Shown: positions 52,617 to 61,468 of the stretch, one piece after another
How the letters are laid out: the number at the start of each line of letters is the position of its first letter
Position numbering within the stretch: position 1 is the stretch's first letter
Assembly: GCA_024650045.1 (NCBI GenBank)
Contig: JANKMU010000006.1
Span: forward strand, 1 to 64,000
DNA length: 64,000 nt
From: Mycoplasmatota bacterium
Lineage (GTDB): Bacteria > Bacillota_I > Bacilli_A > Acholeplasmatales > Acholeplasmataceae
Reading direction: 5' to 3'
Made by a program: the position numbers and the translations under genes
Notes under the pieces: model-generated
What the model saw: the letters and a program-made list of their open reading frames with translations, nothing else
Told to the model about the DNA's origin: nothing
Database searches by the model: none

Positions 52617-53078
52617 TTATCTCTTTGTTATAGTATTCAATATTTTTTGTATTTCGTTTTTTTTGATTGATACAATATAAACACTTGTCTTATCTTTAAA
52701 ATTTAAAAGGTACTCTATATAAAATAAATAATGATGACCAACTTGATAATTCATTAAATCATCTGTTTGATACTTAATTTGTTCATGTTTAATTTTAATT
52801 ATTATTTCATTATCAGTTATTTTAATTGATTGATTCAAATAATTCAGTTTCACAATTAAAATATTAAAAGATATAGCAGAGATCAAACATAATAAAGTAG
52901 ATATAAACTCTTCACCATTAGGTTGATAATACTCAGAAATCCAGGTAGGTTTAATAAAATGATAAATCACTATAGCGATAACACCTATAACAAAACCTAT
53001 ATAGAATAGTATAATGATTACCAGATAAAAACGTCTATACTTTTTTGTGTCTTCATAAAATAGATTTTTATTTTGCAT
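52617..53078 (-). CDS. Two-helix membrane protein at the Rhs scar
   Basis: A 153-residue protein: two membrane helices (about 17-40 and 58-80), then a beta-rich domain (SIKITDNEIIIKIKHEQIKYQTDDL) that resembles bacterial PH-like folds. ATG 53078 follows GGAGG by 11 bases. The open frame continues upstream into the YD-repeat scrap, so its 5' end was probably joined to an Rhs gene by recombination. It might be an orphan immunity-type protein; function not known. Confidence 0.65.
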   Translation of the reverse strand: MQNKNLFYEDTKKYRRFYLVIIILFYIGFVIGVIAIVIYHFIKPTWISEYYQPNGEEFISTLLCLISAISFNILIVKLNYLNQSIKITDNEIIIKIKHEQIKYQTDDLMNYQVGHHYLFYIEYLLNFKDKTSVYIVSIKKNEIQKILNTITKR

Positions 53079-53091
53079 TAAAATAATGACC

Positions 53092-53171
53092 TCCATCTCC
53101 ATATTGGGTAAGACCACTTCAGTTTCAACAATATTGCCATATGTATCATAATATAATAAAAAACTGCTGCA
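53092..53171 (-). pseudogene. Rhs/YD-repeat core scrap, frameshifted
   Basis: The minus strand reads LLYYDTYGNIVETEV, matching the YDAYGNI motif just before the Rhs core of the full gene (HYVYDAYGNIIKTDV). Upstream the frame runs into TAG, while the adjacent frame reads AVFYY, so one base has been lost or gained. It has no start or ribosome binding site and is directly followed by the 52617 membrane protein. Confidence 0.72.
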
Positions 53172-53281: not shown

Positions 53282-53596
53282 CTATTCCAAATTTATTTTT
53301 AACACAAAAGTACTTTTTGACAAATATTCAATATTAACTTTATCTCCAATTGCAAAGTCACCTAAATAGTAAATATAAAATTTCTCATCTTCAATTGTAA
53401 CTATTTTAGCTCGGATGTTATTGTTACCCTCATAATAATATCTCGGTGAATTGTATGCATCTTCAATTAGAGTGATTTCACCAGATTTACTGATGACATT
53501 TGATTCCTTCTCAACTAACAAATAAACCGTTGGCCATATAAGTGCTTTTAATACATACTCTTTATACTGTAATATCATATTTTCAACTCCAATCAT
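53282..53596 (-). CDS. Small Rhs-tip partner (immunity candidate), copy 2
   Basis: A 104-residue protein with one short hydrophobic segment and a beta-rich domain. The C-terminal 70 residues match the copy at 54271 (SPRYYYEGNN vs PPRFYYEDQM; KIVTIEDEKFYIYYLGDFAIGDKVNIEYL vs KIITINEVEYYCMTIGTIEVGDNVEIYYL). It overlaps the orphan tip gene by 14 bases. Pairing with a tip copy, as at 54271/54728, is the reason to call it an immunity candidate; there is no functional proof. Confidence 0.7.
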   Translation of the reverse strand: MIGVENMILQYKEYVLKALIWPTVYLLVEKESNVISKSGEITLIEDAYNSPRYYYEGNNNIRAKIVTIEDEKFYIYYLGDFAIGDKVNIEYLSKSTFVLKINLE

Positions 53597-54107
53597 TTGT
53601 TAATTTTTCTAGATGCCAATAATAATCACCACCTACTCCAGCCATTGGACCACTTGAAAAAACTATTGATGATGATTTTGCATTGTTATTGATATCTCTC
53701 GGATCAAAACTATGGTTTATCCCAATAAAATATCCAACTTCACCACTAATGAATGCTCCCGAAAAGCCACCTTTACCATAATAATTATAAACTGTTCGTA
53801 TTGATAGTGAAACACCAGGAATACCTTTGTAACGACCACCATGAAAGTAGTACTCTACATACTCTTCTTGGAAATTTACTACTGCTGCTCCACCTGCTTT
53901 ATAACCAAAAATCGAAAACGAAACATCAATAACTACGGGTTTTTCACTTATGTATTCAGCAGAGGGACTTGTTGAAACAATCAGTGTTGTTGACATCACA
54001 AATATAACTGCTGTTAGAAACAATGTGAAGGAATAACCATTTTGATCAACATACATTACTGTAGTAACGTATTCAAAGATAAGCATTACGAGTGGAAAAA
54101 ACTTCAT
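53583..54107 (-). CDS. Orphan Rhs C-terminal tip gene
   Basis: A 174-residue protein. Near residue 20 it carries VMYVDQNGYS, the junction motif that separates Rhs core and tip (NPVMYTDITGH in the main gene). After it come a hydrophobic stretch and a glycine/tyrosine-rich domain related to the main gene's tip: VVNFQEEYVEYYFHGG vs VVNLEDEYLEFYPHIG, and SSGPMAGVGGDYYWHLEKLTNDW vs SSPNISYGRDYYYWNENLIIDW. The Rhs core is missing upstream. Ribosome binding site is weak. This fits a displaced, orphan tip left by recombination; the activity of the domain is unknown. Confidence 0.72.
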   Translation of the reverse strand: MKFFPLVMLIFEYVTTVMYVDQNGYSFTLFLTAVIFVMSTTLIVSTSPSAEYISEKPVVIDVSFSIFGYKAGGAAVVNFQEEYVEYYFHGGRYKGIPGVSLSIRTVYNYYGKGGFSGAFISGEVGYFIGINHSFDPRDINNNAKSSSIVFSSGPMAGVGGDYYWHLEKLTNDWS

Positions 54108-54111
54108 TCTA

Positions 54112-54207
54112 CATCTCTACCAAGGGGTTTCTTCGATGTACACCAAATTCAAGGGACAATTCACTTCCTTGGTTAAGTATCGGTATAGAAACTATGTCAT
54201 TATAATG
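54112..54207 (-). other. Unexplained open stretch between partner 1 and orphan tip
   Basis: A 32-codon open minus-strand stretch reading HYNDIVSIPILNQGSELSLE onward between two TAGs. It does not match anything I recognise and could be leftover coding DNA from the displaced element. Confidence 0.3.
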
Positions 54208-54270
54208 CTAGACATTACTATGACACTTGAGCATGTATAAAAGAATCAGGTGTAATTTCTTATTGTAGCT

Positions 54271-54726
54271 CTATTCAATAAGACTGATCGAAAGCACAAC
54301 TTTAGAGTTTTCCAGATAATATATCTCAACATTGTCCCCAACTTCGATAGTGCCAATGGTCATACAATAATACTCCACTTCATTTATCGTAATTATTTTC
54401 GGTATAACCATCTGATCCTCATAGTAGAATCTAGGTGGATCACTTACCGTCCTAATATCCGATATAACTCCTCTCAACTGAATAGATTCTGTTGGGTTAT
54501 CATGCTTGATCTCAGCATTGAAGCCGTTTACACCCGTTACCAACAAAATGGAGGAGAATATACAAGCAAGTAATAATCCAATAGCATATAAATTGACTTT
54601 GCGATGCTTATTGATATAAATCACTAGAACTGACAAAATTCCAAAAATCATGATTGCAGCAATAATTATTGTCATCAGGGGCATTTTATAGAGTTGATTG
54701 TAGTAATCGTTATATTCAAAGTTCAT
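54271..54726 (-). CDS. Rhs-tip partner (immunity candidate), copy 1
   Basis: A 151-residue protein with two membrane helices (about 14-36 and 45-65) and a C-terminal beta-rich domain (OB-like by eye: RGVISDIRTVSDPPRFYYE, KIITINEVEYYCMTIGTIEVGDNVEIYYLE). It begins 1 base after the Rhs stop and has a paralogue after the orphan tip. Position and paralogy suggest immunity to the adjacent tip domain. A regulator or unrelated passenger cannot be excluded. Confidence 0.68.
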   Translation of the reverse strand: MNFEYNDYYNQLYKMPLMTIIIAAIMIFGILSVLVIYINKHRKVNLYAIGLLLACIFSSILLVTGVNGFNAEIKHDNPTESIQLRGVISDIRTVSDPPRFYYEDQMVIPKIITINEVEYYCMTIGTIEVGDNVEIYYLENSKVVLSISLIE

Positions 54727-54727
54727 T

Positions 54728-57385
54728 TTAATTCCCCCAATCTATGATCAAGTTTTCATTCCAATAATAATAGTCTCTACCATAAGAGATGTTGGGACTT
54801 GAGAATTCAACATAATAAGCCTTAACAGCATTGGTATATTTCAAATCTTCATCGACCCCATAGCAATGACCACCACCTACCCAATAGCCTCCTTCGGTAT
54901 ATTCAAACCATTTTCTATAATCCCCAGGGTTATTGTAATTCTCAAGAACTCCAAGAGAAACTGCTGGACCTTTAGAATAACCAAATGATGGACCAATATG
55001 CGGATAGAACTCAAGGTATTCATCCTCTAGATTTACAACAATGGATATCCCTAATTTAACACTAAATCCTGGAATTATAGGAATACCAAAAGATAAATCG
55101 ACAACAAACTCTTCAGAAATACTTCTTCCAATAGATTTGTATCCATCGGCAACCCATTTCCAGTAATTATATAGCCATTCAGGTGCGTGTCCGGTTATGT
55201 CTGTATACATTACTGGATTGTTTTGACAATATGCATACATATTAGTAGACTGAATATCTCCAAATACTCCTAACAATCCATCACTACTAATAAATCTGCC
55301 AATCTCAGGATTATAATATCTACTATTCAAGTAATACATACCTATTTCAGAATCATATCGATAACCTCTATAGGTATAGGAATTGATTGCTGCTATATGT
55401 TCATAGCCAGATGTCACATCAGTTTTAATAATATTACCATAAGCATCGTAAACATAATGAACAACTGTTGTTCCATTTGCACTTATGATATGTGATATAT
55501 CCCCTAATTGATTTCTTAAATAGAAATAATCTTCTTCGTTACTACTTATATTCACATTTGGATCATATGAGAACCCAATGAGTGTTCCATCGTAGTCATA
55601 TGTATAAATTATAGCATAAGTTCCATTGGTTTCATAGATGACTTTGTCACCTATTAATGTATACTCAATGGTTTCCGTTAATGTAGGTGTGTAATATGAA
55701 AATGCATAAAACTCTTTTTGTATACGATATCCTTGATCATTATATTTGTATCTAATTTGGTAAGCAGGTGATGAACTTCCAGCCATAATCGTTATGTATG
55801 TTAATTCTCTACCATTCCAAGATAGATATGCTCCATAGTATATTGTTCCATTATAGAAAAAATTCTTTATATACGTAGGGTTACCTTGAGCATCATAGGT
55901 ATATTCTTGAAGAATTTCTTGTGTTTGAGGAACTCCATTGATATATTCTACTTCTCCATAACTTTCTAGTTGATCTTTCCATGTTGAATTATAGTTATAT
56001 TGAATATGCTCTTGTGGTGTAACAGATGTATCTGTAGGATTCCCAACTTTAAAAACAATTCTAAACTCTATATAATAATACATACCATCTGTTGCTGTAT
56101 AATCTCTATAGTAATAACCTTCTTGATTGACATCCAGATTAGAGTAGATCATATTAGTTGTCATACCTGTAGCAAAACATTGGTTGACAAAATCATAATA
56201 ACTAAATGATAGAGATGGGTTTTGTCCTATATTTAGTTCATATATGTCTTGATAGTCTTTAGATCCATTATAATACATCTTGACATCCCAATATCCATTA
56301 TTATACTGATAAAATGGTGGAATAACAATTGGTTCTGAGTCATTTTGTCCATATAAGAAGGTTTTTATATCAGTAATATTCCCCAAAGAATCATAATAAT
56401 AATATTTTGTGAAATTGGTATCGCTTAGTATGTTGATTTGATATGCATAATCTCTAGATTCTTCGACGACTAGCTGGTTAAGCGCATCATACTCATAATT
56501 CCTTTTTAATTTAATCGTAGATCCTTCGTAGTAGGATTCACTCGTAATGTTCCCAAGCGTATCATAATTATATGTGTATTTGTAGTCAACTCCAGCACCA
56601 TTAATTTCATATATGATTTGATTGATTCGGGTTGTGCTTCCTGAATAGATAAAGCTTTGTTTCGCATTAAATGTATTGATGGTTAAGTTTATGTATTCTA
56701 AACGATATAATGCACTAGATTCATAGTGATAATCCTTAGTAACTTGATTATTCGAACTTGTAGTATAATAGGTTTTATCATACAAACTAGATGTTTGAAC
56801 ACAAGTAGATCCATCATATTGAAAACATTCATTATGTGCATAGTTTGTCGCTGTGGAATTTCCATTAATTTCAAAGTATAGAGAAGTAAGATTACCCGTA
56901 TCATCATAAATGTATTTGACAATATTACCCTCATGATCAACGACCTGAGTTAAATTTCCGCTCGAATTATATGTGTAATATTCACTTGTTTTTATGACAC
57001 CGTTTTCTATTGTGTTATAAACTGCAATTCTACCATTTTGATCATGTTCATAAGAAAATTTTTCATTGAAAGATCCACCTGATTTTTTAAACTGGATAGA
57101 TGAGATTTGATTTTGTTCGTTATACTCAAACTTGATAGCATCTCCATTACCATATGTTTGTTCAGAAAGTTTACTTGTCTCATAATTGCTTTTACTCACA
57201 TAAGTATAGCTCATAAGTGTTTGATTGTTAACTGTAACACTTTCCATTCTTCCTTCTAAATCGTAATTTATCTCATAGTAATAGTTTGTACCTAAAATGA
57301 TTTTCCATAAACGGTCAGATGAATCATACATATACTCAACTAATGCATCCTCATCTCCGGAAGTATAATTTGTGTAGTCTTCCAC
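54728..57385 (-). CDS. Rhs/YD-repeat protein, distal part with core and C-terminal tip
   Basis: 885 codons from GTG 57385: many YD repeats (YDSSDRLWKIILG; YDLEGRMES), the Rhs core RGYRYDSEIGMYYLNSRYYN and NPEIGRFISSDG (near 672-702), the junction NPVMYTDITGH (near 722), and a 155-residue tip rich in G, Y and W. The frame is the same as 57674-61468 and open throughout from the TAA at 57674; no ATG lies between. It is therefore the rest of one gene, translated only if the stop is read through, if GTG 57385 is used (AAAGG upstream), or if the TAA is a sequencing error. No known nuclease or deaminase motif is visible in the tip. Confidence 0.82.
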   Translation of the reverse strand: MEDYTNYTSGDEDALVEYMYDSSDRLWKIILGTNYYYEINYDLEGRMESVTVNNQTLMSYTYVSKSNYETSKLSEQTYGNGDAIKFEYNEQNQISSIQFKKSGGSFNEKFSYEHDQNGRIAVYNTIENGVIKTSEYYTYNSSGNLTQVVDHEGNIVKYIYDDTGNLTSLYFEINGNSTATNYAHNECFQYDGSTCVQTSSLYDKTYYTTSSNNQVTKDYHYESSALYRLEYINLTINTFNAKQSFIYSGSTTRINQIIYEINGAGVDYKYTYNYDTLGNITSESYYEGSTIKLKRNYEYDALNQLVVEESRDYAYQINILSDTNFTKYYYYDSLGNITDIKTFLYGQNDSEPIVIPPFYQYNNGYWDVKMYYNGSKDYQDIYELNIGQNPSLSFSYYDFVNQCFATGMTTNMIYSNLDVNQEGYYYRDYTATDGMYYYIEFRIVFKVGNPTDTSVTPQEHIQYNYNSTWKDQLESYGEVEYINGVPQTQEILQEYTYDAQGNPTYIKNFFYNGTIYYGAYLSWNGRELTYITIMAGSSSPAYQIRYKYNDQGYRIQKEFYAFSYYTPTLTETIEYTLIGDKVIYETNGTYAIIYTYDYDGTLIGFSYDPNVNISSNEEDYFYLRNQLGDISHIISANGTTVVHYVYDAYGNIIKTDVTSGYEHIAAINSYTYRGYRYDSEIGMYYLNSRYYNPEIGRFISSDGLLGVFGDIQSTNMYAYCQNNPVMYTDITGHAPEWLYNYWKWVADGYKSIGRSISEEFVVDLSFGIPIIPGFSVKLGISIVVNLEDEYLEFYPHIGPSFGYSKGPAVSLGVLENYNNPGDYRKWFEYTEGGYWVGGGHCYGVDEDLKYTNAVKAYYVEFSSPNISYGRDYYYWNENLIIDWGN

Positions 57386-57673: not shown

Positions 57674-60600
57674 TTATGAGTCTGTTGATATTTCCAATGT
57701 AGTCCCATCAAAAAACTGTACTTCGGTTGGTTTCGATGCATAATCTTTGGTTGCATCATAACTATATTCTGTTCTATCACCTCTAGATGTTTCAACCGCT
57801 GTTAAGTTCCCATAAATGCTATTGTATTCATAGTTTGTATATGCGTTTTCAAAGAACACTTGAAGACCGTCAAAATATACTGATTCTTCTCCTTTGTATT
57901 CAAAGAAAACATTAACCCAATATGTATCTACATCAGGTAAAGTAACCTCGCCATATTGATAATTCCAACCTTCAATTGTTGTGTCAAAGTCTATATATTC
58001 ACTTTTGATAATTGTAGCATCATACTCTGGACCCCAAACAAAAACTGCTTCAGAAACAAAATCAACTCTGATTCTGAAATGTCTATCGTTACCATTATCT
58101 AAATCTGATTGTGTTAATGTTGCTGGCACGCCTGATGATCTTGCCCAGGCACCTATGACTAGTTTTCCTTTTTCATCCAACATTGAAGTGTCTAAAAATT
58201 CAGAAATACTTGTTACTGCTGAACGTGATGCTGTGCTTGACCCTTCTATTTGAATTGCATGGTTTCCCAATATGCTTTTATACAAATCATCTATTGTATG
58301 CCCGATTTCCGTTCTATAAACATAATCAATATCACTATATGTCCATCCTGGTACATTGCCATAGGAGTCAGCATATTCAAAAGAAGGATTATCAATCATG
58401 TTCGTACGATTATCTACAAATCCTTCATATATTTGTATATTATCGAAAAATGCTCTACCATTTGCATGATTTATTAAAGAAATCGTAACTTCTGTATTAT
58501 CGTTAGAAACAACAAAAGTCATAGTAATTTTTGTCCATTTCTCACTTGGGCTTATATAAGTAACTGTTCCACCTTGATCATGTCCTTCAACATCAATCCA
58601 TACATTGCTTGAATTAGTTTCGTTTTTAACATACCCTGTAAGTGTATATGCGTTTGCATCTAAAATAATCGTTTGTTCAAAATGTCCAGTGTCAATAGCA
58701 TTTGCATTAATCATTGCAGAATAAGTTCCAAATAGGACTTCTCTTGTTGATTGAAGATCGCGATCTGGTTCTTGAATCTCTCCTGTATCATTGTAATATT
58801 TCCAATTCACGTCTTGATTGATTCCAGAATACTCAAATCCATGATTATTAATAGGATTGAACAAACTGCTTTGTGGACTCGATTGTGAAACTAAACGATG
58901 ATTATGAATGTAATTTGGTTCACCATCAATAAAAATATAGCTATTTTGTGTGGATTCTGGATTGCTAAATATGTTTGAGTACTTATAATATTGAATATTC
59001 CCATATTTATCTAGAATATTAACGGTATGGCCAAAATCATCAAACTTATACTGGACAAAATCGTTATTTTGATCAGTAATTATCGTTTTTCTCAATGAAT
59101 AGTCATAAGAAATTTCAGAAAATATACTTGCTCCATAAAAAGCCCTAATCCCTGCTATCTTGTTTGATGTATTATAATCATACTCAATTCGCTCATCATC
59201 TCCATCATAGGTTGCTAGAATTCTTCCATATGCATCATAGTCATACTTAAGTACTTCATCTACAGTCATCAATAATGTATCATCATAATTTTTACTATAC
59301 TCAACATTAAGTTCATACTGTCCAGAACCGTCTAGTTTAGCTACATAACTGTAATTGACTTCTTCAAGCAAATATGGATTTGTGCTACTATTTTGATAAA
59401 TATAAAGTTTAGATTTTGAAATATTACCATTTAAATATGTTATTTCAATTTTATTCCCAGAACTATCTGTAATCTTAGTTACTTTTTTAAGATCACTGGT
59501 ATCCCTGGTTATGTAAATCACCTGATTCGATTCTTCATTGGTTATTGATGCCAAATATCCAGAACTGTTATATTTTTGCTTTATATTGTTCTTTGTATAT
59601 ATATAATAACCTGATAAACTTCCGTATACAGTTGATTTATATAATACATTTCCTGAACCATCATCTGCCATATAGCATGTATAAACATATGGGTCAGGTG
59701 CAGTAATTCTGCTATCACAAGTCGTGGAATGGTAATATACGACATTTCCTGTTGAATCTGTAGATTTGTACAAGCCTATATAAGAGTCGAATTCAACATA
59801 AGAGTTATAAACAATATTCCATCCTTTGAAATATCCATAATTTGATGAGCGATCTTGAATATTGTATGAGAATCCTAAAGAAAGTGTTTGTCTTTGAGTT
59901 GAGTAATTCAAGTCACTTCTTACTATATTGAGTAATCCAGTGAAATCTGAAACATATCCTGTAGAATATTCTCCAATATGTTGTGAATTATATGTCCAAT
60001 AATCTTTTATACCTGCAGAATCTATGTAACCAATTTCAATCACAGGATGGTATGTTGAGTTACTATGATCCATAGATCTTACAGAATTATAAGCTCCAAC
60101 ATCGCTTTTATCCTTTATAGTAAACCCTGTTGTTCGTGTAACACCAGTTGCATGCCATTCTCTAACTGCCTTTGTTATATTAAACAAGTAAGTATTAGAA
60201 GTGCCTACAACATGATAATCTGTCATAGTTGTTGATATAGTCGGTTTATTGTTCCATGTTGCTGTATTTGAAGAAAAATTTGAATTGTTTTTATATAAAC
60301 CGATGGTTCTATCGATTGCACCAATGGATTTTGTTAATTTCAATGTTGAGTATGTGATTTGCTTATTCATGATATGACTTGGTAAATAAAAATACATTAA
60401 TCCTCGATACTCACTTGAAGAATTTGATAAAACCATGATTGTAGAAGTAGAATAGTTCGAAGTTGGATTGGCTTGGGATACATATGTATCAAAGATTGAT
60501 ATAGCCTGAGTCGAACTATTGATAGTGGGATCAATTGTCACCGGAAAACTTGCTTCTTTTAACCATTCATCATCAATTGTTACTGTGATTTGATATGTGT

Positions 60601-61468
60601 TCACCTTTGTGTTTTCAACTTTTAATTGAACTAAATCTGTTTCGTTTTCATTAGCGTCAAAAGCATAAAGATTACTAAAATTGAAGATTTCATCTCCATT
60701 ATCATTAATAAAAATCACCTGGTCATTTTCTTGAACAAGTGTCAGATTTTTCAGTGAGTATTCAAATGATATTGAGAAATTGTTTATATATTTTTCAAGA
60801 ATGATATTTTCTTTTACGTTAGTGCCATTAACTATATATTCTAGGTCAACTCCAGTCATAATATTTCGATATGTTACTTTTTGTGAAATGTCCGTTAGTT
60901 CTTTTAAGTTATTGGATTTAGCATCATTTTTCTCGATATCAATAGATGATTTGTTAATAGAAATAACTCGCCAATCTACTGAGTATTTATCTAACTCTAA
61001 TTTGATTCTCTTATTTTCATCAAGCTTTTTTGGTAACTTTATTTTGAAAGCATTTGCTTTATTTGTATATAAATCTGATTTGCTTTCATAACCAAGCGAG
61101 TTATCTATACTTTCAAATGTACCATTTTCATCGTAATGAACAGCATCATTGTAAATAGATACAACATAACTACCATCAACTCTTTGAAATGTCTTGGTAT
61201 TATTGGTTCTTAATGAATTCACTTCTCCTAATAATTTGATTTCTGAATAGTCGAAATTAGGATCTATTGTTGCTGGATAATCTTTCAATGTATCTTGAAC
61301 ATCTATTGGTTCAACAATGTCAGTTGATATTGCATGCAATGCATTCCATGGTACCAAACTTGAGATTTGTCCCAATAAAGCAAGAAAAACAAGAATCTTC
61401 TTGCTAGCATCAAGTAGTCTAACAAAAATTAAAATCTGTTTGTCACTCACAGTTCTTTTTTTGAACAT
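57674..61468 (-). CDS. Rhs/YD-repeat protein, proximal part with DNRLRE and carbohydrate-binding-like domains
   Basis: 1,264 codons. N-terminal export signal (KKILVFLALLGQISSLVPWNALHA). Residues about 310-470 form a DNRLRE-like domain (STQAISIFDTYVSQANPTSNY; LTKSIGAIDRTIGLYK). YD repeats lie around 690-840. Two jelly-roll, carbohydrate-binding-like domains follow (NVWIDVEGHDQGG, and GWTYSDIDYVYR to NVFFEYKG). It stops at TAA 57674-57676 in the middle of YD repeats. Very large, single-gene unit, 3,795 bases, next to nothing similar in the window. Confidence 0.85.
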   Translation of the reverse strand: MFKKRTVSDKQILIFVRLLDASKKILVFLALLGQISSLVPWNALHAISTDIVEPIDVQDTLKDYPATIDPNFDYSEIKLLGEVNSLRTNNTKTFQRVDGSYVVSIYNDAVHYDENGTFESIDNSLGYESKSDLYTNKANAFKIKLPKKLDENKRIKLELDKYSVDWRVISINKSSIDIEKNDAKSNNLKELTDISQKVTYRNIMTGVDLEYIVNGTNVKENIILEKYINNFSISFEYSLKNLTLVQENDQVIFINDNGDEIFNFSNLYAFDANENETDLVQLKVENTKVNTYQITVTIDDEWLKEASFPVTIDPTINSSTQAISIFDTYVSQANPTSNYSTSTIMVLSNSSSEYRGLMYFYLPSHIMNKQITYSTLKLTKSIGAIDRTIGLYKNNSNFSSNTATWNNKPTISTTMTDYHVVGTSNTYLFNITKAVREWHATGVTRTTGFTIKDKSDVGAYNSVRSMDHSNSTYHPVIEIGYIDSAGIKDYWTYNSQHIGEYSTGYVSDFTGLLNIVRSDLNYSTQRQTLSLGFSYNIQDRSSNYGYFKGWNIVYNSYVEFDSYIGLYKSTDSTGNVVYYHSTTCDSRITAPDPYVYTCYMADDGSGNVLYKSTVYGSLSGYYIYTKNNIKQKYNSSGYLASITNEESNQVIYITRDTSDLKKVTKITDSSGNKIEITYLNGNISKSKLYIYQNSSTNPYLLEEVNYSYVAKLDGSGQYELNVEYSKNYDDTLLMTVDEVLKYDYDAYGRILATYDGDDERIEYDYNTSNKIAGIRAFYGASIFSEISYDYSLRKTIITDQNNDFVQYKFDDFGHTVNILDKYGNIQYYKYSNIFSNPESTQNSYIFIDGEPNYIHNHRLVSQSSPQSSLFNPINNHGFEYSGINQDVNWKYYNDTGEIQEPDRDLQSTREVLFGTYSAMINANAIDTGHFEQTIILDANAYTLTGYVKNETNSSNVWIDVEGHDQGGTVTYISPSEKWTKITMTFVVSNDNTEVTISLINHANGRAFFDNIQIYEGFVDNRTNMIDNPSFEYADSYGNVPGWTYSDIDYVYRTEIGHTIDDLYKSILGNHAIQIEGSSTASRSAVTSISEFLDTSMLDEKGKLVIGAWARSSGVPATLTQSDLDNGNDRHFRIRVDFVSEAVFVWGPEYDATIIKSEYIDFDTTIEGWNYQYGEVTLPDVDTYWVNVFFEYKGEESVYFDGLQVFFENAYTNYEYNSIYGNLTAVETSRGDRTEYSYDATKDYASKPTEVQFFDGTTLEISTDS

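What the first reader, a model, noticed from the sequence alone, without database searches (positions are those of the whole stretch)
53583..55230. Unrecognised Rhs tip domain present in two diverged copies
The C-terminal 155 residues of the main Rhs protein and the 174-residue orphan protein share a glycine/tyrosine/tryptophan-rich domain ending in D-Y-Y-W-x(8-9)-D-W. I see no nuclease, deaminase or ADP-ribosyltransferase motif. It may be an undescribed polymorphic-toxin tip.
Basis: partly seen in the sequence, partly recalled or inferred. Interest (0 to 1): 0.8.

Follow-up and report, generated by a model that had tools for sequence, protein, structure and literature searches.

The report
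New beta-barrel Rhs toxin tip family
A wall-less bacterium carries two diverged copies of a previously unnamed C-terminal toxin-like domain of an Rhs weapon protein, each followed by its own small partner gene; related pairs in seven other genomes suggest a toxin-and-immunity module that acts at the cell membrane.

Summary
The last ~153 residues of the Rhs distal ORF (54731-55189, -) and the 174-aa orphan (53583-54107, -) are homologous (BLASTP E=9e-15; shuffle z=17). The next genes (54271-54726 and 53282-53596) are homologous too, so a tip+partner module is present twice. The orphan is a displaced Rhs tip that still carries the end of an Rhs core; its partner lacks the membrane hairpin. Profiles found nine complete tips in eight genomes (four orders of one class). 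Each lies at, or is displaced from, an Rhs end, and is followed within -4 to +17 nt by a small, usually membrane, protein. No Pfam, NCBIfam, PHROG, PADLOC or PDB-sequence match was above noise. AlphaFold2 gives a confident all-beta barrel (pLDDT 90) whose only high-probability PDB matches are VapB/D/G; for the usual partner it gives two membrane helices plus an OB-like domain predicted to face outward. A relative has a decayed tip beside an intact partner; in another a near-identical Rhs core carries an unrelated tip. The C-terminal 'D-W' largely reflects the partner's Shine-Dalgarno sequence. Best reading: a new Rhs toxin/immunity family acting at the target membrane, probably by permeabilising it; toxicity is untested. 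The main Rhs here has an in-frame stop.

The parts
54731..55189 (-). Tip (C-terminal domain) of the main Rhs, residues 733-885 of the 885-aa ORF; barrel core 54731-55114
   Evidence: after RHS core TIGR03696 at residues 646-733; AF2 pLDDT 89.7 all-beta; coordinates
54271..54726 (-). Cognate partner, putative immunity protein: two TM helices plus OB-like domain, 151 aa
   Evidence: family A5/A7; AF2 pLDDT 89.3; OB-fold hits; starts 1 nt after the tip stop
53583..54107 (-). Displaced ('orphan') tip: Rhs-core remnant VMYVDQNG (54036-54059), hydrophobic segment, barrel domain 53586-53942
   Evidence: E=9e-15 to the main tip; coordinates; arrays of the same kind in L015, L017
53282..53596 (-). Partner of the orphan, 104 aa (98 aa from the family-typical start at 53578); lacks the two-TM hairpin that relatives have
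   Evidence: full-length relative in G028 (L042)
54728..57385 (-). Rhs distal ORF, 885 aa (RHS repeats, RHS core, tip); the open frame extends up to 57673
57674..61468 (-). Rhs proximal ORF, 1264 aa: signal-peptide-like start, DNRLRE domain, YD repeats; ends in TAA in the same frame as the distal ORF
52617..53117 (-). Third membrane-protein ORF, preceded in frame by an Rhs-repeat scrap (YYDTYGNIVETEV); probably another orphan immunity remnant of a different module
   Evidence: not similar to the PH-like partner

Best explanation
A new family of Rhs C-terminal toxin tips with dedicated immunity proteins. Shown here: the tip is an exchangeable module at the Rhs core end, its gene is tightly coupled to a small membrane-protein gene, and the module is present twice in this window, once displaced and partly decayed. 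Predicted: the tip folds as a compact beta-barrel and the usual partner as a two-helix membrane anchor with an OB-like domain on the outer face. Inferred: the Rhs protein is exported by a Sec-type signal, the tip is released at a neighbouring cell and attacks the outer face of the cytoplasmic membrane, which is bare in these wall-less bacteria, most likely by permeabilising or depolarising it, while the partner of the producer and its kin binds the barrel at the membrane and blocks it. My estimates: toxin/immunity pair 0.85; acts at the membrane given that 0.65; by permeabilisation rather than lipid chemistry given both about 0.65.
For: Tip directly after the RHS core. Identical-core/different-tip exchange in G022 (258/276 core identity, tips unrelated). 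Nine complete tips in eight genomes, each followed by a small partner gene; in 10 of 10 pairs (a truncated tip included) the partner starts -4 to +17 nt from the tip stop. The partner family also occurs as orphan genes without a tip, and in G028 a tip with four stops precedes an intact partner, the signature of selection for immunity. Tip and partner distances correlate (Mantel r=0.42, p=0.03). AF2 barrel; the only listed Foldseek PDB hits with probability 0.99 are VapB, VapD, VapG; Vap proteins bind and permeabilise liposomes (PMC10100859). Two unrelated partner families (hhalign E=0.12) both look like membrane proteins. In all 14 full-length OB-type partners the inter-helix loop is the most positive segment, which puts the OB domain outside. 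No transpeptidase PF00905 in this 99.9% complete genome while it rings in 10 of 14 controls.
Against: No toxicity data. Foldseek E-values for Vap are weak (about 0.05) and TM normalised by the query is below 0.5. Seven polar or aromatic residues are invariant in all nine complete tips (D763, Y794, H796, N816, Y817, H840, Y873), which could mean an enzyme. The PH-like partners of G110 and G117 look cytoplasm-facing by eye. In this genome the main Rhs is interrupted by a stop codon and the orphan partner lacks its membrane hairpin, so the window copies may not be active. The Mantel signal is modest.
Confidence: 0.5

Rival explanations
1. The tip is an enzyme (an all-beta nuclease, lipase or envelope-modifying enzyme) whose active site is built from the invariant Asp, His, Asn and Tyr residues; the membrane partner only anchors an inhibitor domain.
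For: D763, H796, N816, Y817, H840 and Y873 are invariant in nine domains that are only about 25-62% identical; several predicted all-beta Ntox families have D/H motifs (PMC3482391).
Against: No catalytic motif or family match; both partner families look membrane-embedded, unlike the usual soluble immunity proteins of nucleases (general knowledge).
Confidence: 0.25
2. The domain is a structural or adhesive cap of the Rhs shell, not a toxin, and the partner is a chaperone or anchor.
For: Toxicity is not shown; beta-barrels are also binding domains (VapB resembles avidin, PMC4089522).
Against: Tip swapping on a near-identical core, orphan tip-partner modules, and partner genes that outlive their tip are expected of toxin/immunity pairs and not of a structural cap.
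Confidence: 0.1
3. The tip is a member of the Ntox25/Tse4-type beta-barrel ionophores.
For: One member matches Pfam Ntox25 at E=0.59; Ntox25 domains disrupt membrane potential and are predicted to form a tapered beta-barrel (PMC11630599).
Against: The match is noise: 10.4 bits against a cut-off of 25, one member of the family only, and stretches in unrelated genomes score up to 16 bits.
Confidence: 0.15

Closest known systems
Rhs/WapA polymorphic toxins with orphan rhs-CT/rhsI modules
   Same: Sec-type start, YD/RHS repeats, RHS core, exchangeable C-terminal tip, adjacent small gene, displaced orphan tip plus partner downstream (described in PMC3967940)
   Different: tip and partner families have no curated model; host is a wall-less member of an Acholeplasma-like order; partners are membrane proteins
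R. equi Vap family (PF05526) beta-barrels
   Same: closest solved folds to the AF2 model (probability 0.99, TMt 0.56-0.59); about 110-residue barrel; Vap proteins are membrane-active (PMC10100859)
   Different: no sequence match; the single helix precedes the barrel here, whereas Vaps have it between strands 4 and 5; R. equi Vaps are separate secreted proteins, not Rhs tips with an immunity gene
Ntox25 / Tse4 beta-barrel ionophores
   Same: toxins predicted as beta-barrels that depolarise membranes (PMC11630599)
   Different: sequence match at noise level only
EsxX with ExiAB and ExiCD
   Same: one toxin family met by distinct immunity families, including membrane proteins that also occur as orphans (PMC12744356)
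   Different: EsxX is a glycine-zipper toxin of the T7SS; here each tip has a single partner of one family or the other

Membership tests
Rhs/WapA polymorphic toxin system | RHS core immediately upstream of a variable C-terminal domain | tested here: met
   TIGR03696 at residues 646-733 (E=3e-20), tip 733-885
Rhs/WapA polymorphic toxin system | different tips on the same core | tested here: met
   G022: core 258/276 identical, tips unrelated
Rhs/WapA polymorphic toxin system | small partner gene directly downstream, as for cognate immunity | tested here: met
   10 of 10 pairs, -4 to +17 nt; protective function itself not tested
Rhs/WapA polymorphic toxin system | orphan tip/immunity modules downstream with core remnant | tested here: met
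   window 53282-54107; arrays in L015 and L017
Rhs/WapA polymorphic toxin system | tip is toxic and the partner neutralises it | not testable with these tools
   needs expression
R. equi Vap family (PF05526) | match to the family profile | tested here: not met
   no hit for any member at E<=1 or E<=10 for the seven scanned
R. equi Vap family (PF05526) | eight-stranded barrel, strand order 1-2-3-8-5-6-7-4 | tested here: inconclusive
   Foldseek probability 0.99 but E about 0.05; DSSP lists seven strands, two of them long; coordinates not available to trace the topology
Ntox25 (PF15530) | match to the family profile above cut-off | tested here: not met
   one member, 10.4 bits against 25
Known immunity or membrane families (Pfam, NCBIfam) for the partner | hit above curated cut-off | tested here: not met
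   only weak hits to membrane segments

The most novel reading that the evidence does not exclude
A Vap-like beta-barrel fold, known as a membrane-active virulence factor of an actinobacterial pathogen, serves as an interbacterial Rhs warhead in wall-less bacteria, permeabilising the naked membrane from outside, and is met by two unrelated families of membrane immunity proteins, one presenting an outward-facing OB domain.
Probability: 0.27. Interest if true: 0.68.

Novelty: new member of a known kind. Interest (0 to 1): 0.5.

Why it matters
It adds an unnamed toxin-tip family and two unnamed membrane partner families to the Rhs repertoire, in wall-less bacteria; a library search for Rhs, Acholeplasma and toxin together found no paper. 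If the membrane reading is right, it joins interbacterial barrel toxins (Ntox25, Tse4) and the Vap barrels in one testable question: does this kind of barrel permeabilise membranes by itself? It also offers a clean case of an immunity gene whose ribosome-binding site is written into the last codons of the toxin.

Tried and rejected
Scans of viral contigs, plasmids and phages for the tip: nothing. PDB sequence profile: noise. PHROG hits (one at 0.006, one member) judged noise. The partner's PDB hits to choline-binding and large-toxin repeats are short aromatic-repeat matches, rejected. Profile hits in G423, G424, G543, G619 near E=1e-4 to 1e-3 rejected: the one read (G424, L012/L025) is an aminotransferase-like protein, the locus read for G543 (L026) shows no Rhs context, and none of the four returned with the fuller profile in the order-level search. 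Another beta-rich Rhs tip (L049) is not related by hhalign. Ntox25 and PF05526 searches of the class/phylum: nothing above cut-off; the PF05526 search rang in no control either, so it does not prove absence. The idea that D-W is a functional motif of the domain was dropped in favour of the Shine-Dalgarno reading.

Full report
WHAT IS THERE. On the minus strand lie a 1264-aa ORF (57674-61468) with a signal-peptide-like start, a DNRLRE domain and YD repeats, and an 885-aa ORF (54728-57385) with RHS repeats, an RHS core (residues 646-733) and a 153-residue tip. The two ORFs are in the same frame, separated by one TAA; intact relatives exist, for example one open frame of 2111 codons in G022. Downstream come the partner (151 aa), the displaced tip (174 aa) and its partner (104 aa), then a further membrane-protein ORF with an Rhs-repeat scrap in front of it. 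Genes here end in TGA, TAG or TAA and use TGG for Trp, so the ordinary code applies.

IS IT MORE THAN CHANCE. Tip versus orphan: 32% identity over 170 columns, E=9e-15, z=17 against shuffles. Partner versus partner: E=9e-12, z=14.6. The two window tips are not each other's closest relatives: in the core domain the orphan is 42% identical to the G042 tip and 36% to the main tip, so they need not come from a local duplication; separate acquisition is as likely.

THE FAMILY. Profiles found complete tips in eight genomes in four orders of one class: the window genome (two copies), G022, G042, G110, G117, G288, G268 and G532, plus a truncated copy in G288 and a decayed one in G028. The named records behind four of them are an uncultured Mollicutes MAG, an Anaeroplasma MAG, an Acholeplasmataceae MAG and Inordinaticella fortuita 4B. 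Within the window's order 6 of 160 genomes carry it, the decayed one included; the distribution is patchy, as expected of exchanged tips. All lie at the end of an Rhs protein or begin with the remnant of an Rhs core, except the truncated and decayed pieces, which have lost that part. Invariant in all nine complete domains: D763, G779, Y794, H796, G798, N816, Y817, F827, G837, H840, Y873 (window numbering). In six of the nine, by eye, a strongly hydrophobic segment lies between core and barrel (alignment).

THE PARTNERS. Eight of the ten pairs have a partner of one family (A5; A7 adds seven further partner genes): two TM helices followed by a small beta domain. AF2 gives pLDDT 89, and Foldseek matches the beta domain to OB folds. 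Positive residues concentrate in the loop between the helices in all 14 full-length members, which predicts N-out, loop-in, OB domain out. G110 and G117 instead have a partner of another family (the two are related to each other at E=5e-4), unrelated to the first (hhalign E=0.12); by eye it looks like two TM helices plus a PH-like domain. One tip family with two unrelated membrane partners resembles the situation of EsxX (PMC12744356).

EVIDENCE FOR TOXIN AND IMMUNITY. (a) Partner start within -4 to +17 nt of the tip stop in 10 of 10. (b) Partner genes without tips in G028, G038, G149 and G150, some beside other Rhs fragments; upstream of these no tip remnant is detectable except in G028 contig 63, where a tip with four stops precedes an intact partner. 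(c) Tip swap on a 93% identical core in G022. (d) Correlated divergence of tips and partners (Mantel r=0.42, p=0.03), modest. Orphan modules of this kind are known from enterobacterial rhs loci, where recombination with the main gene can bring them into use (PMC3967940).

THE D-W ENDING. The last tip codons contain the Shine-Dalgarno sequence of the partner: GATTGGGGGAATTAAAATG (main), GATTGGAGTTGAAAATATG (orphan), TGGAGGAATTAATG (G110), TTGGAGGGATTAA (G288), GATTGGAGTAAAAAGTAATG (G288, second copy). In G042 the same nucleotides CGATTGGAGTGATG are read in another frame as R-L-E-stop, and the tip-less partners of G028 keep GATTGGAG in front of their start. The nucleotides are thus kept where the amino acids are not, so the terminal D-W is largely a ribosome-binding site, which would couple immunity to toxin in translation. 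The D-Y-Y-W part lies in the last long strand of the barrel and is a genuine feature of the domain.

FOLD AND MECHANISM. AF2 with ten sequences gives pLDDT 89.7 and pTM 0.84: an N-terminal helix and long beta-strands. Against the PDB no hit reaches E 0.001; the only high-probability ones listed are VapB, VapD and VapG (probability 0.99, TMt 0.56-0.59), all other listed hits being at 0.44 or below. Vap barrels are eight-stranded with an unusual strand order (PMC4118825, PMC4089522) and permeabilise liposomes (PMC10100859). Interbacterial beta-barrel ionophores exist (Ntox25, Tse4; PMC11630599), but the sequence link to Ntox25 is noise. The host genome lacks penicillin-binding transpeptidases while 10 of 14 control genomes show them, so a kin cell probably exposes its membrane directly. 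Taken together, a toxin acting at the outer face of the membrane is the best reading; the step from barrel to permeabilisation is inferred, and an enzymatic role for the invariant Asp/His/Asn/Tyr set is the main rival.

STATE IN THIS GENOME. The main Rhs carries an in-frame stop and the orphan partner has lost its two membrane helices, while its full-length relative in G028 keeps them. The window copies may therefore be a partly decayed locus, and tests are better done on intact relatives.

VERDICT. A real, unnamed Rhs tip family with dedicated membrane partners: a new member of a known kind, with a plausible but unproven membrane-acting mechanism.

Noticed in passing
window 57674-57676: In-frame TAA splits the main Rhs gene into a 1264-aa and an 885-aa ORF of the same frame; relatives in G022 and G117 have long unbroken frames.
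   Followed up: partly
window 54728-54745 and 53581-53612: The Shine-Dalgarno sequence of the partner gene is written in the last codons of the tip (GATTGG(A/G)G, read as D-W); in G042 the same nucleotides are read in another frame.
   Followed up: yes
window 52617-53165: A third membrane-protein ORF is preceded in frame by a scrap of Rhs repeat (YYDTYGNIVETEV), probably the remains of another displaced module.
   Followed up: partly
L049 1950-2627: In G149 a different beta-rich Rhs tip (GGGISAQLSLDKKGNLGFQYS...TTNAPTIYDLNG) follows an orphan partner gene; no Pfam match and not related by hhalign.
   Followed up: partly
L015 5380-7764 and L017 639-4800: Arrays of displaced Rhs tips that each begin with TPVMYxDxxGH or a variant, with unidentified small genes behind them.
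   Followed up: no
G000 (whole genome): No penicillin-binding transpeptidase (PF00905) in a 99.9% complete genome, consistent with a wall-less bacterium.
   Followed up: partly
G015:C1 around 1562287-1566222: A 6245-codon open frame with at least three repeats spaced 1.9 kb apart, seen through sub-threshold Ntox25 matches.
   Followed up: no
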